NCBI RefSeq assembly: GCF_038751955.1
Contig: NZ_JBCEXH010000004.1
Location: forward strand, 124,001-188,000
DNA length: 64,000 nucleotides
Reading direction: 5' to 3'
Source of the DNA: Methanocalculus natronophilus
GTDB taxonomy: Archaea; Halobacteriota; Methanomicrobia; Methanomicrobiales; Methanocorpusculaceae
Shown here: piece after piece, positions 47,478-61,334 of the stretch
Layout: each line of letters starts with the position of its first letter
Numbering within the stretch: the first letter of the stretch is position 1
Made by a program: the position numbers and the translations under genes
Notes under the pieces: generated by a model
What the model was told of the DNA's origin: nothing
Databases searched by the model: none
The model's input: only the letters and a program-made list of their open reading frames with translations

Positions 47478-49364
47478 TCATTCTTCGATGGTCGAGAGAT
47501 CCCCTGGATCTTCTCCGAGTTCCTGTGCCCTGAGGACTCTCCTCATGATTTTGCCGCTTCGTGTCTTTGGCAGAGAGTCGGCAACCCTGATCTCGGAGGG
47601 AACCGCAATCGGGCCGAGGGTGATCCTGACATGGTAGGCGAGATCCTGTTTGAGTTTTGGCGTCTCGACGATCCCCTCCCGCAGGAGCACAAATGCCAGG
47701 ATCCGGTTGCCTTTCATCTCATCAGGAATACCAACGACTGCTGCCTCCGCAACGGCCTTGTGAGCGACGAGTGCGCTCTCCACCTCGGCAGTGCCGATGT
47801 TATGGCCTGAGACGATGATCAGGTCGTCTGAGCGCCCAAGGATCATGATGTACCCTTCGTCATCCCTGACCGCAAGATCGCTTGCCTGGAAGCTGTTGCC
47901 AGGCCCGCTCCAGTACTGACGGTATCTCTCTTCATTCTGGTGAACCATACGCGCCATTGATGGCCAGGGCTCCTTGATGATCAGCTGGCCGGAGACGCCC
48001 GGAGGAACGGGATTGCCCTCCTTATCGACGATGTCGACAAGAACACCGGGTATTGGTTTCCCGGCAAATCCCGGCTTCATCGGCTCCCCGATCATAGTGG
48101 TGATCATGTGCATGCCAGTCTCGGTCTGCCACCAGGTGTCGATAATCGGGAGTCTGCCTTTCCCAATCGTATGGTAATACCATTCGAATGCCTCAGGATT
48201 CAGCGGTTCACCTACCGATCCGAGCAGACGCAGCGTGGAGAGGTCATATTGATTCGGATACTCTTCTCCAAACCTCATGAACATCCGGATCGCTGTTGGG
48301 GCGGTGTAGAGGATTGAGACGCCGAATTTTTCGATATATTTCCACCAGATGCCCGGATCCGGGTAGTCTGGCGTTCCTTCGGTGATAAAGATGGTCGCGC
48401 CCATCAGAAGCGGCCCATAGACGATATAGGAGTGGCCGGTGATCCATCCGGGATCGGCTGTACACCAGAAGACATCAGAGTCCCTGATGTCCAGGACATA
48501 CTTGCTTGTGTAGTAGGTCCCGACCATGTAGCCTCCTGTTGTATGGACAATGCCCTTGGGCTGCCCGGTGGTTCCGGAGGTATAGAGGATGAAGAGCGGA
48601 TCTTCGGCATCCATAGACTCGGGTGCACATGTTTTTACACTCCTCTCCATCAGTTCGTAAAAGTCCCACTCAAAATCGGGGATGAGGTTGATCTTTGGGC
48701 TCTGTGACCGGTAGACAACGACATGGTCGACTGTTGTTGCATTGATAAGCGCCTCTTCAAGGATAGGCTTCAGCGGGATCGTCTTTCCACGCCTGATACT
48801 GGCATCAGCAGTAATGACAACTTTTGCTCCTGCCCCGGTTATGCGTGCATGGAGTGCGTCTGATCCAAATCCTGCAAAGACAACTGAATGGACTGCTCCA
48901 ATCCGTGCACACGCAAGCATCGCGATAACCTGCTCGGGGACATTTGGCATGTAGATGCAGACGGTATCGCCTTTTGCAACGCCAAGGCTCTTCAGTCCGT
49001 TTGCAAACCGCTCTACCTCACGGAGAAGCTGCCAGTAGGTATAGCTTTTTGTTGTTCCGTCGTCGCCCTGCCAGAAGAGTGCGACTTTGTTCCTCCGGTG
49101 GCTCCCGATATGCCTGTCAAGGCAGTTGAAGGAGATATTGGTCTTTCCGTTGACAAACCAGCGGGCAAAGGGGTGCTGCCAGTCTTTTACGGTATCAAAC
49201 GGCTGGAACCATTCGAGTTCATTGCTTATCCGAGCCCAGAATCCATCCGGATCAGTGAGATAACCCTGGTAGACATGGTCAGCATCTTTGACAAACGCAT
49301 CTTTACAGAAGATGGGATCGGGCATGTATGTTTTTGTACTCAGCTTCACCTGTTTCTCGGTCAT
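47478..49364 (-). CDS. acs: Acetyl-CoA synthetase, AMP-forming
   Basis: A 628-residue ANL-superfamily enzyme that activates acetate to acetyl-CoA with ATP. The P-loop [19 protein letters not shown], the acetate pocket tryptophan in [12 protein letters not shown], the hinge [23 protein letters not shown] and the catalytic lysine in [15 protein letters not shown] are all present. The start [19 protein letters not shown] at 49364 gives a normal length. With the cdh operon this allows acetate assimilation or the first step of acetate use; the enzyme costs two phosphate bonds. No acetate kinase or ADP-forming synthetase is in the window. Confidence 0.96.
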
Positions 49365-49949: not shown

Positions 49950-50801
49950 ATGAATGAGTACCTGGTCTTTCTATCCTGTATTGGTTTTCTTCTTTTTCTG
50001 ATACCAAACAGGTACCGATGGTATGCAGGCATCATCGGCTGGGCGTCCATATCCCTGCTTCTCTTACTTGAGCTGCCAGGTTTTCTCGAGATTAACAACT
50101 TCCTCTATCCGACAATCGGCATCCTTTCGGTTCCCTTTGTCTACCTGACAGCGCGGCGTCTGCTGGCAGAAGATCAGGCTATCGGCTCACTTACAAAAGC
50201 AGCGGCGTTTTCATTTCTCATCTATGCACCGTTTGGGTTCATTGATCCACTTCGAAACTGGCTGATAGCAGTCGTTGTCGACCAGACATATTTTGTCCTG
50301 TCGCTTCTCAAGTATCCAGTCACCCTGTACTCATGGAATACCTTCATGGCAGGGTCAATACCCGGCAGTGATCTCGGATTCCGGGTTGAGATTGTCCTTG
50401 GGTGCACGGGAATTGCCAGCATCGCCATCATGCTTGCGGTTGCAAATATGGTGCCGACGACTCTCCGGCAGAAGGTCCTCGCCTTTCTCCTGATAGCACC
50501 AACCATCTATATTCTCAATCTCTTCAGGAACGCCTATGTCATCATGGCATATACCGGCCAGTGGTACCCCTGGCTTCCTGAGCTTGTGGGACGGGGAGCC
50601 TATGGCTATGAGAGTTTCTTCTGGGCACACAATGTCGTCTCTGAACTACTGGCCCTTGCACTTCTCATTGGAATGGCTTATGCGCTCTTCCGACTCATCC
50701 CCGATCTCGGGGTGATGGCAGAGCAGCTGATTTCCAGGTATATTCATGATAGCAGAGAGCTTGTGGCCGGGTTCAGGCAAGCCGTTTTGAGAGGTAGATG
50801 A
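49950..50801 (+). CDS. artA: Archaeosortase A
   Basis: A polytopic membrane protease-transpeptidase of 283 residues that cleaves the C-terminal PGF tail of surface proteins and attaches them to lipid. The catalytic residues are Cys ~151 (LGCTGI), Arg ~193 (NLFRNA) and a histidine ~227 (WAHNVV) where homologues may have Arg. Eight or so hydrophobic helices are visible from the N-terminus. The convergent neighbour is a CDP-alcohol phosphatidyltransferase, overlapping by 29 bases; in Haloferax, ArtA function depends on phospholipid headgroup synthesis, which makes this pairing meaningful. No PGF-tailed substrate was recognised in the window. Confidence 0.9.
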   Translation: MNEYLVFLSCIGFLLFLIPNRYRWYAGIIGWASISLLLLLELPGFLEINNFLYPTIGILSVPFVYLTARRLLAEDQAIGSLTKAAAFSFLIYAPFGFIDPLRNWLIAVVVDQTYFVLSLLKYPVTLYSWNTFMAGSIPGSDLGFRVEIVLGCTGIASIAIMLAVANMVPTTLRQKVLAFLLIAPTIYILNLFRNAYVIMAYTGQWYPWLPELVGRGAYGYESFFWAHNVVSELLALALLIGMAYALFRLIPDLGVMAEQLISRYIHDSRELVAGFRQAVLRGR

Positions 50802-56069: not shown

Positions 56070-56519
56070 ATGACAGATTCACCATTGTTTGTTATCCAGA
56101 AGCATGATGCACAGAACCTTCATTACGATCTCCGGCTTGAGGTTCAGGGAACCCTCCGCTCCTGGGTTCTTCCAAAAGGCCCATCCGCAGACCCGGCGGT
56201 GAAACGGCTTGCCATGGAGACAGCGGATCACCGCCTTGAGTATGCCGCGTTTGAAGGGGTGATCCCGGAAGGTGAGTATGGTGCCGGTACGGTGCTGATC
56301 TGGGATCGCGGCACCTTCGAAAACCTCAGGCTGGAGAAAGATGGAACGGATATAGAGAGATCCCTTGCTGAAGGGAAGGTTGAGGTATTCTTTTCAGGTA
56401 CCAGGATGAAAGGCGGCTGGGCTCTCATCCGGACGGGGAAGCCATCTGAAGGCCGCTGGCTCTTCATCAAGATGAAGGATGAGTATGCAGACAGGACAAC
56501 CAGACTCACGGATGCATAA
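56070..56519 (+). CDS. Stand-alone LigD-type 3'-phosphoesterase
   Basis: A 149-residue homologue of the phosphoesterase domain of bacterial DNA ligase D, which heals 3'-phosphate and 3'-ribonucleotide ends. The active-site pattern is FVIQKHDAQNLHYDLRLEV (the His and Asp that bind the metal). LRSWVLPKGPS and ETADHRLEYAAFEGVIPEGEYGAG follow, with the second catalytic His in the latter. The ATG at 56070 is preceded by GAGGG; the frame is open upstream to 55866 but a TATA box sits inside that extension, so I reject it. No ligase or Ku gene is adjacent, so it acts alone or with distant partners. Confidence 0.9.
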   Translation: MTDSPLFVIQKHDAQNLHYDLRLEVQGTLRSWVLPKGPSADPAVKRLAMETADHRLEYAAFEGVIPEGEYGAGTVLIWDRGTFENLRLEKDGTDIERSLAEGKVEVFFSGTRMKGGWALIRTGKPSEGRWLFIKMKDEYADRTTRLTDA

Positions 56520-56705: not shown

Positions 56706-58010
56706 ATGACCTCCAACCCGGCCCGCCATCCAGTACCTGCTTTTGATCTCTTTAATGTCTTTTTTGAACGGATATACGATCCAACAGTTCATGTCGTATT
56801 CACGTTTTCCGGCCATCTTGATGAGGGAAAACTACGGGATGCGACCATGCAGGTGATTGCTGCCAACCCCTATCTTGGCACCCGTTTCATAGTGGTCGAC
56901 GGTGTGCCGGTCTGGGAGGAGACGCAGCAGACTCTGTGGGATGCGGCGTTTGTTCTTCTCGATGCAGCAGAAACAGATTTCCCGCCTGCTGTTGTGCCCG
57001 ATCCGCTTGATGTCCGGAACGGCCCACAGATCCGGGTTGCTCTCTACAGAAAACCGGATTCTGACTGCGTTGTTGTCACCTGCCATCACGGGTTCTGTGA
57101 TGCGAATGGTGCATTTGTGCTTGGAAAGGAGGTTTTTGCCGCATATCGTGGTGTATGTAACGATACCGGGTATGTCCATCCGGAAACGGGCCTCTATGAC
57201 CGGACAACTGCTCGTCTGCTCTCCCTCTATACTGAAGAGGAGAAAAGAGCTGCTATTGCGGAAGAAGAACCCTTCATCGACAGGTGGCGGTTTCCCGTGG
57301 TGAGTGCCGGCCGGGGTGTTCCAAAGGCTGCATACAGAAGACTCAGGGGTGATCGCCTCAGCAGGATCAAGGCGTTTGGGAAGAGGTTTGATGCTACAGT
57401 CAATGATCTGCTGCTTGGTGCCTTCTTCCTCGCGTTTCTTGCGATCAGGGATGATCCTGCTGACCGCGGAGCACCCCGCGGGATTCTGACGTCAGCAGAT
57501 ATGCGGAAGTTTCTGCCGGGTGACGGCGATACCCCGCCTGCGAATCTCTCGGTTGCATTTGAACTGACACTCAGTGTCGACGAGGGTGCAACGCTTGAGG
57601 ATATTCTTCCAACGGTTGTAGCCTTCACACGCAGGCGAAAGGAAGGCGGGCTGGGGCCCGGCTGCATTCATTTTTATGAAGAGATTATGGCAGGCGGGAT
57701 GGATTCAGTTGAAGGCTTCTTTGACGGGATGATCAAACGGTACCAGGAATCCGGCCAGAAGAACCCGGTCTTTGCAAACCTTGGTGTGATCGACTGCGAT
57801 GCCTATCTTCCTGTTCCGGGGCGTGACGGCTCTTCGCCTGACCTGCGCGATGTCTGGTTCATCCCCTGTGTCTGCTGGCCATATGGGTTCCTGGTGACGG
57901 CTTATACCGTTCTGGAAGAGGTTACCCTCATGACTGCATACGAGGAGGGACCGTACTCAACTGAGACTGTTGAGCGGTTTTTAGAGTATATGGATGGGTA
58001 TCTGCCGTGA
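56706..58010 (+). CDS. Stand-alone condensation-domain (NRPS-type acyltransferase fold) protein
   Basis: A 434-residue protein with the two-lobed acyltransferase fold of NRPS condensation domains, PapA and wax-ester synthases. The N-terminal lobe starts PVPAFDLFNVFFERIY and contains VTCHHGFCDANGAF (~residues 125-138), which matches HHxxxDG except that the final glycine is alanine followed by Asn-Gly. The C-terminal lobe has NDLLLGAFFLAFLAI and a DMRKFLPGD segment. No adenylation, carrier or thioesterase domain is nearby, so the acyl donor and acceptor are unknown. It overlaps the HD-domain gene. A role in acylating a lipid or small molecule is a guess. Confidence 0.75.
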   Translation: MTSNPARHPVPAFDLFNVFFERIYDPTVHVVFTFSGHLDEGKLRDATMQVIAANPYLGTRFIVVDGVPVWEETQQTLWDAAFVLLDAAETDFPPAVVPDPLDVRNGPQIRVALYRKPDSDCVVVTCHHGFCDANGAFVLGKEVFAAYRGVCNDTGYVHPETGLYDRTTARLLSLYTEEEKRAAIAEEEPFIDRWRFPVVSAGRGVPKAAYRRLRGDRLSRIKAFGKRFDATVNDLLLGAFFLAFLAIRDDPADRGAPRGILTSADMRKFLPGDGDTPPANLSVAFELTLSVDEGATLEDILPTVVAFTRRRKEGGLGPGCIHFYEEIMAGGMDSVEGFFDGMIKRYQESGQKNPVFANLGVIDCDAYLPVPGRDGSSPDLRDVWFIPCVCWPYGFLVTAYTVLEEVTLMTAYEEGPYSTETVERFLEYMDGYLP

Positions 58011-58606
58011 GTCCGGGTATGGAAACAGATGATGGAATTGATCTGATACAACGGCATGTCAGGGCGTTTCTCAAGGAATCGGGCTCCCACGGGTTCGATC
58101 ATACCGCCCGTGTCACCCGTCTCTGCAAAAGAATCGGATTGCGCGAGGGTGCGGATATGTCGGTACTCATCCCTGCCGCCCTCTTCCATGATATCGCCCG
58201 GCCCCTTGAGGAGGAGACGGGCATCCCCCATGAAGAGCAGGGATCAGAGATGGCGGCAGCATATCTCACATCTGCCGGGTACCCCGGTGATCAGGTTGCT
58301 GCAATCACGCATGCGATCCGTTCCCACCGTTTTCGTTCTGGGGTTCTGCCGGAGACGCGTGAAGCGAAGATCCTCTCGGATGCCGACAAGCTGGATGCGA
58401 TGGGTGCAGCAGGCATTGCCCGGACTTTCATGCAGGCAGGGGAGGAGGGCACCGGGATTTCAGGGGCGGTTGCTCATTTCCATGAGAAGTTGCTGAAGCT
58501 GAAGGATAGGATGTATACGGAGGCTGCCCGTGAGATAGCCGAAGAGAGGCATGCGTTTCTTCGTATGTTTCTCCAGGAGCTTGAGCGCGAGGAATGCGGG
58601 GATTAG
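58007..58606 (+). CDS. HD-domain phosphohydrolase
   Basis: A 199-residue single HD domain. The metal-binding residues are in HGFDHTARVTRLC, PAALFHDIARPLEEE, HAIRSHRF and ILSDADKLDAMGAAG, all in the expected order. GTG 58007 overlaps the stop of the condensation-domain gene; ATG 58019 is an alternative. Its substrate is not predictable: nucleotides, cyclic nucleotides and phosphorylated small molecules are all possible. The tight coupling to the condensation protein suggests the two act in one process. Confidence 0.87.
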   Translation: MSPGMETDDGIDLIQRHVRAFLKESGSHGFDHTARVTRLCKRIGLREGADMSVLIPAALFHDIARPLEEETGIPHEEQGSEMAAAYLTSAGYPGDQVAAITHAIRSHRFRSGVLPETREAKILSDADKLDAMGAAGIARTFMQAGEEGTGISGAVAHFHEKLLKLKDRMYTEAAREIAEERHAFLRMFLQELEREECGD

Positions 58607-60724: not shown

Positions 60725-61228
60725 TTATGAAATCGCATGCAGTTCCCTGACAACAGACTCCACATCCTTTTCTGAAGATGCGATCGTGATGTCGGCATAC
60801 TGCTCATAGAGGGGTACCCGGCTCTCGTACATCTCGCGGAGGGTCTGGTCCGGAAGGAGGACGATACCCCGTGTTGTGATGTTTTTGATCCTCTTTTCCA
60901 TCTCGGAACAGGAGATCTCCAGGTACACAACAACTCCAAGAGATTTCAGGTGCTCCATTGCGGCCCTGCTCCAGATGACGCTTCCGCCGGTTGCGATCAC
61001 CGAGTGGCGGGGGCTGAGTGAGAGGATCACTTCCTCCTCGATCTGGCGGAATGCATCGGGGCCGTCCTCGTCAAGGATCTCCTGGAGCATCCTGCCGCTC
61101 TGCTGCTGTATCAGGATATCGCAGTCAATAAACTGCATGCCAAGCGTCTTTGCAAGGACGACGCCGACGGTGCTCTTCCCGGCACCCGGCATGCCGATAA
61201 GGATGATGTTGTGCTGGGGGTGGGTCAT
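60725..61228 (-). CDS. AroK-type shikimate kinase-like P-loop kinase
   Basis: A 167-residue nucleoside-monophosphate-kinase fold protein. It has the P-loop LIGMPGAGKSTVGVVLAKTL, a substrate-binding FIDCDILIQQQSGRMLQEI, SVIATGGSVIWSRAAMEHLK and a lid region near RGIVLLPDQTLREMYESR. This is the bacterial-type shikimate kinase pattern. Most methanogens use a GHMP-type shikimate kinase, so this protein may act on another substrate or replace it. ATG 61228 with GGAG nine bases upstream is preferred over ATG 61282. No other aromatic-pathway gene is adjacent. Confidence 0.8.
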   Translation of the reverse strand: MTHPQHNIILIGMPGAGKSTVGVVLAKTLGMQFIDCDILIQQQSGRMLQEILDEDGPDAFRQIEEEVILSLSPRHSVIATGGSVIWSRAAMEHLKSLGVVVYLEISCSEMEKRIKNITTRGIVLLPDQTLREMYESRVPLYEQYADITIASSEKDVESVVRELHAIS

Positions 61229-61334
61229 CGGAGGTACTCCTGAATCATCTTCTCCTCTTCGTGTGATTGTTTTAGGATTCATTATCAGGGGCTTTTATTT
61301 CTGCTTCCTGAATCAATTTGTCAAAATCGCTTTT

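What the first reader, a model, noticed from the sequence alone, without database searches (positions are those of the whole stretch)
56706..58606. Condensation-domain protein coupled to an HD hydrolase: possible unknown acylation pathway
A full NRPS-type condensation fold, with HHxxxD retained and the final Gly replaced by Ala, is translated with an HD phosphohydrolase. No carrier protein or adenylation domain is near. Free condensation domains in archaea are poorly studied and could join amines or alcohols to acyl groups, for instance in lipids or cofactors.
Basis: partly seen in the sequence, partly recalled or inferred. Interest (0 to 1): 0.6.

Follow-up and report, generated by a model that had tools for sequence, protein, structure and literature searches.

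The report
Free-standing condensation-fold enzyme in methanogens
This methanogen carries a single-domain relative of the enzymes that join building blocks of non-ribosomal peptides, probably an uncharacterised acyl-transfer enzyme shared across its order, but the HD hydrolase gene beside it is there only because a stretch of DNA between the two is missing in this strain.

Summary
Window 56706-58010 (+) encodes a complete 434-aa free-standing condensation (C) fold with HHGFCDA, followed by an HD hydrolase. The coupling is not supported. In three congeners the same two genes flank a 13-18 kb block (PEGA surface proteins, solute-binding proteins, an ABC transporter), and that transporter has no close copy in this genome. 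Of 28 genomes with both genes on one contig, only this one has them adjacent. The HD reading frame probably starts 9 bases after the C stop, not overlapping it.

The C protein is worth keeping on its own. It is widespread in Methanomicrobiales (homologues in 144 of 232 genomes, the close orthologue in about 76) and rare elsewhere in the phylum. His128 and Asp132 are invariant in all 69 homologues examined; Ala instead of Gly is the family norm. The genome has no detectable carrier protein or phosphopantetheinyl transferase, but several acyl-CoA-synthetase-like genes. Best guess: an acyl-CoA-dependent N- or O-acyltransferase of unknown substrate, working like PapA5 or TRI3. No gene neighbour is conserved order-wide, so the substrate cannot be named. 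A new, order-restricted member of a known fold class; modest interest.

The parts
56706..58010 (+). Free-standing condensation-fold protein, 434 aa, HHGFCDA motif at residues 127-133, catalytic His128/Asp132
57084..57104 (+). HHGFCDA active-site motif (residues 127-133), followed after 14 residues from the Asp by Tyr147 as in NRPS-type C domains
   Evidence: sequence; conservation
58019..58606 (+). HD-domain phosphohydrolase (YedJ/YpgQ type); likely start ATG 58019 rather than GTG 58007. Neighbour by position only, not shown to be part of the same system
   Evidence: family; start; not a conserved partner
47478..49364 (-). Acetate--CoA ligase (AcsA), a possible source of acyl-CoA donor; syntenic in congeners but not shown to be linked
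   Evidence: synteny

Best explanation
The C-fold protein is a free-standing, carrier-independent acyltransferase. His128, in the HHxxxD motif at the junction of the two lobes, deprotonates an alcohol or amine acceptor, which attacks an acyl thioester, most likely an acyl-CoA such as acetyl-CoA, giving an ester or amide of a small molecule. The HD phosphohydrolase next door is an independent enzyme that became adjacent when a 13-18 kb block was lost from (or never entered) this lineage. Shown here: fold, conserved catalytic residues, lack of detectable carrier protein and phosphopantetheinyl transferase, order-wide conservation, non-conserved pairing. Inferred: that it transfers acyl groups, that CoA is the donor, and that the acceptor is a small molecule.
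For: Full-length C fold with high confidence; structural matches to C domains, PapA5 (1q9j, TM 0.65-0.66 by query), TRI3 15-O-acetyltransferase (3fot, 0.71) and AzeD (8s6l, 0.75). His128, Asp132, Arg267 and Asn280 invariant, and Asn358 and Gly360 invariant wherever not gapped, in 69 homologues. No PP-binding or ACPS family match in a 99.7% complete genome, with controls ringing; only about 10 of 76 orthologue-bearing genomes have any PP-binding match. Six strong AMP-binding enzymes in the genome, including acetate--CoA ligase, so acyl-CoA can be made. An SDR gene lies 50-52 bp upstream of the orthologue in three loci and a TetR regulator upstream in two, which suits small-molecule chemistry. 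Independent HD.
Against: 44 of 48 orthologues keep HHxxxDx14Y, which PMC10619693 describes as the NRPS-type signature, as against plain HxxxD in CoA-dependent enzymes. The close structural match AzeD is labelled a dehydratase, and C folds also epimerise, cyclise or hydrolyse, so acyl transfer is not certain. No order-wide conserved gene partner supports any substrate.
Confidence: 0.5

Rival explanations
1. The enzyme is a C-fold protein with a non-acylating reaction (dehydration, epimerisation, isomerisation or thioester hydrolysis) on a small or CoA-bound substrate.
For: Highest TM score among the listed matches is AzeD 'dehydratase' (0.75); C-fold domains are known to dehydrate, epimerise and hydrolyse (PMC10880069); NRPS-type HHxxxDx14Y signature kept in 44 of 48.
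Against: The characterised examples act on carrier-bound substrates, and no carrier protein is detectable here; low sequence identity (about 16%) to AzeD gives no transfer of function.
Confidence: 0.2
2. It is a detoxifying acyltransferase (chloramphenicol-acetyltransferase-like role) acting on foreign compounds.
For: TetR-family regulator 27 bp upstream of the orthologue in L006 and likewise upstream in L005; divergent members lie beside a MATE transporter (L080) or a protein that looks like an MFS exporter (L077, by eye from its sequence).
Against: Those neighbours occur in only a few genomes; the orthologue is conserved through whole genera, more like a core function than an accessory resistance gene.
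Confidence: 0.12
3. The C protein and HD hydrolase form a two-enzyme acylation pathway.
For: In this genome they are about 8 bp apart on the same strand and could be co-transcribed. Orthologues co-occur more often than chance across genomes (61 both, 15 C only, 39 HD only, 117 neither).
Against: Co-occurrence is confounded by shared ancestry. The genes are 14-18 kb apart in three congeners and 14 kb to 2.5 Mb apart in all 27 other same-contig genomes. 39 genomes have HD without the C orthologue.
Confidence: 0.04
4. It is a dead remnant of an NRPS.
For: No A or T domain beside it; weak overall sequence match to PF00668.
Against: Complete, confidently folded, catalytic residues invariant over an order, own orthologous clade with 100/99 support.
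Confidence: 0.02

Closest known systems
PapA5 (phthiocerol dimycocerosyl transferase, PDB 1q9j)
   Same: Free-standing C fold of about 420 aa; HHxxxD active site; whole-length structural match, TM 0.65-0.73; weak match to PF16911 PapA_C in 15 of 20 orthologues
   Different: NCBIfam PapA5 models score 13-17 bits against cut-offs of 716 and 396; about 15% identity; no polyketide synthase neighbour or carrier protein here
NRPS condensation domains (PF00668; e.g. SrfA-C, TycC, bacitracin synthase 3)
   Same: Pfam match over the cut-off; HHxxxDx14Y kept in 44 of 48 orthologues; best E-values in PDB sequence and fold searches
   Different: Not embedded in an NRPS; no A or T domain partner; no detectable carrier protein or phosphopantetheinyl transferase in the genome; Gly of the motif is Ala
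AzeD of Pseudomonas aeruginosa (8s6l)
   Same: Single-domain C fold, TM 0.75 both ways
   Different: 16% identity; AzeD belongs to a carrier-based pathway (my recollection, not tested); profile match E 8e-5 only
TRI3 trichothecene 15-O-acetyltransferase (3fot)
   Same: Single-domain C/BAHD-like fold, TM 0.71 by query; CoA-dependent with an HxxxD base (PMC10619693)
   Different: Fungal, 12% identity, different substrate class
YedJ/YpgQ-type HD phosphohydrolases (for the neighbour)
   Same: Matches 2pq7, 5dqv (YpgQ) and 3gw7 (yedJ); PRK10119 by NCBIfam
   Different: Below the NCBIfam equivalog cut-off (98 against 286 bits), so not assigned as YedJ itself

Membership tests
Condensation-domain superfamily (PF00668 fold) | Two-lobed chloramphenicol-acetyltransferase-like fold | tested here: met
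   AF2 model pTM 0.90; PDB fold search dominated by C domains
Condensation-domain superfamily (PF00668 fold) | Catalytic second His and Asp of HHxxxD | tested here: met
   H128 and D132 invariant in 69 of 69
Condensation-domain superfamily (PF00668 fold) | Gly after the Asp (HHxxxDG); a common but not universal feature | tested here: not met
   Ala in 47 of 48 orthologues. PMC1894796 states this Gly is not invariant in C domains, so this does not exclude membership of the superfamily
NRPS condensation domain (as part of an NRPS) | Works with carrier-protein-bound substrates; linked A and T domains | tested here: not met
   434-aa single domain; no PP-binding, no ACPS in the genome
PapA5 / Pap acyltransferases | Curated family model score | tested here: not met
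   17 bits against 396; 12.8 against 716; PapA_C 16.3 against 30
PapA5 / Pap acyltransferases | Acyl transfer to an alcohol | not testable with these tools
   needs an enzyme assay
CoA-dependent HxxxD acyltransferase (works like) | HxxxD base and a CoA-binding tunnel | tested here: inconclusive
C/HD two-gene pathway | Conserved gene pairing | tested here: not met
   1 of 28 same-contig genomes adjacent; 14-18 kb apart in three congeners
HD phosphohydrolase (neighbour) | PF01966 match with His/HD/Asp metal ligands | tested here: met
   E 6.6e-17; H61-D62 pair and D125/D127 visible in the alignment

The most novel reading that the evidence does not exclude
A Methanomicrobiales-specific acylation step on a core cofactor, lipid head group or osmolyte, catalysed by a carrier-free C-fold enzyme that keeps the NRPS-type HHxxxDx14Y signature plus lineage-specific conserved cysteines beside the active-site motif (C126) and near the C-terminus (C390).
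Probability: 0.15. Interest if true: 0.6.

Novelty: new member of a known kind. Interest (0 to 1): 0.3.

Why it matters
A conserved, apparently catalytic acyl-transfer-type enzyme across an order of methanogens whose genomes mostly lack detectable carrier proteins suggests a metabolite or modification not yet described there, and it is a tractable single-gene target. The HD coupling, which made the finding look like a pathway, can be dropped.

Tried and rejected
Operon partner: compared gene order in 53 loci; no neighbour recurs beyond a few related genomes (HEAT-repeat protein after C in four loci, SDR before C in three, TetR before C in two). Several 'conserved neighbours' in Methanoculleus (such as cluster 1) look like out-of-frame ORFs in GC-rich DNA and were disregarded. 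Carrier-dependent mechanism: rejected for this genome. PapA5 membership: rejected on scores. Defence system: no PADLOC match. Literature: five searches found no paper on this protein in Methanomicrobiales; the library is open-access only, so absence is weak evidence. No useful promoter or terminator signal (bacterial consensus, not suited to archaea).

Full report
What is there. The first, 56706-58010, is 434 aa. Pfam calls it Condensation (PF00668, 33.4 bits against a cut-off of 30.6), and each of 20 orthologues matches the same family. AlphaFold2, given the alignment of orthologues, returns a confident model (pLDDT 90.3, pTM 0.90) whose matches among solved structures are C domains, epimerisation domains, PapA5, AzeD and TRI3. 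So the fold claim is right.

Where it comes from. All 33 relatives found in named genomes are from Methanomicrobiales or unnamed Euryarchaeota bins; the nearest are Methanocalculus genomes at 60-66% identity. The window's genome is 2.0 Mb, 99.7% complete, and this is its only significant PF00668 match.

The active site. HHGFCDA occupies residues 127-133. His128 and Asp132 are invariant in 69 of 69 distinct homologues, including those at only about 25% identity; His127 is invariant only in the 48 close orthologues; Ala replaces Gly in 47 of 48 orthologues and 17 of 21 divergent members. The Ala is therefore the family norm, not decay, and PMC1894796 notes that the second His is invariant in C domains while the Gly is not. 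Arg267 and Asn280 are also invariant, as are Asn358 and Gly360 wherever not gapped. 44 of 48 orthologues keep HHxxxDx14Y, a pattern that PMC10619693 attributes to NRPS-type rather than CoA-dependent enzymes. In the tree the orthologues form one group with 100/99 support.

Distribution. 144 of 232 genomes of the order have a homologue, 100 of 135 among the good-quality ones; about 76 carry the close orthologue (my count, used). In an even sample of the phylum, 76 of 393 genomes match, and all but eight of those belong to the same order.

The HD gene. It is a YedJ/YpgQ-type HD phosphohydrolase; YpgQ is an Mn-dependent nucleotide pyrophosphohydrolase (PMC8177086), which is a lead, not a demonstrated activity here. 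A match is present in 112 of 232 genomes of the order. Its pairing with C is the weak point of the finding. In three other Methanocalculus-group genomes (L065, L066, L067) the two genes sit on either side of a 13-18 kb block of PEGA-domain surface proteins, solute-binding proteins and an ABC transporter. Where the stretch extends far enough, the outer neighbours are the same as in the window: the iron-sulphur protein upstream of C and the transglutaminase-like lipoprotein beyond HD. The window lacks that block, and the block's transporter permease has only a 26% identical best match elsewhere in this genome, so the transporter at least is missing, not moved. Part-presence of the block beside C in a fourth congener (L034) makes a deletion in this lineage more likely than an insertion in the others, but I did not prove direction. 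Over 28 genomes with both genes on one contig, the next-smallest distance after this one is 14 kb. The two genes do co-occur across genomes more than chance (61/15/39/117, Fisher p about 8e-16), but that test ignores shared ancestry, and 39 genomes have HD without the C orthologue.

The HD start. The GTG that overlaps the C stop gives six residues with no counterpart in relatives, whose homology starts at residue 7-9 in the congeners. An ATG at 58019, in frame and nine bases past the stop, gives METDDGIDL, which lines up with MDGGIDL of a congener. Co-transcription in this strain remains possible.

What it probably does. No match to the carrier-protein family or to the 4'-phosphopantetheinyl transferase family was found in the genome, while those searches rang in 11 and 10 of 14 control genomes. 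Across the order only 33 of 232 genomes have any carrier-protein match, and about 10 of those carry the C orthologue. By contrast nine AMP-binding matches, six of them strong, are present, one an acetate--CoA ligase 7.3 kb upstream in the window. An acyl-CoA donor is therefore the simplest assumption for an acyl-transfer reaction. Acceptor and acyl group are unknown: no neighbour is conserved beyond a few related genomes, and the suggestive ones (SDR in three loci, TetR in two) are too few to settle it. A non-acylating reaction remains a real rival, since the match with the highest TM score is labelled a dehydratase.

Lineage-specific cysteines. Cys126 and Cys390 are each present in 46 of 48 orthologues and in none of the 21 divergent members. 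It is recorded as a lead only.

Verdict. Real, intact, conserved, uncharacterised as far as the searched literature shows; a new order-restricted member of the free-standing C-fold class. The 'coupled' part is most likely an accident of gene order.

Noticed in passing
window junction 58007-58019; L065, L066, L067: A 13-18 kb block (PEGA surface proteins, solute-binding proteins, TupABC-like ABC transporter, methyltransferase) lies between the C and HD genes in three congeners and is absent here.
   Followed up: partly
residues 126, 131, 388, 390 of the C protein (window 56706-58010): Four cysteines beside the active-site motif and near the C-terminus are nearly invariant in the orthologues; 126 and 390 are absent from all divergent homologues. 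Possible metal or structural site.
   Followed up: partly
window 49950-50801 +: Archaeosortase A (TIGR04125, 262 bits), indicating PGF-CTERM surface-protein processing in this genome.
   Followed up: no
window 60725-61282 -: Shikimate-kinase-like protein scoring best against a 'homoserine kinase' model (NF040667, 184 bits, just under its 197 cut-off): possibly a homoserine kinase.
   Followed up: no
window 56070-56519 +: Stand-alone DNA ligase D 3'-phosphoesterase domain (PF13298; TIGR02777 over cut-off) immediately upstream of the C gene.
   Followed up: no
G103-G109: One genus of the order carries three or four C-fold matches per genome, close and distant, pointing to old duplication and diversification of the family.
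   Followed up: no
L020, L031, L032: A short-chain dehydrogenase gene lies 50-52 bp upstream of the C orthologue on the same strand.
   Followed up: partly
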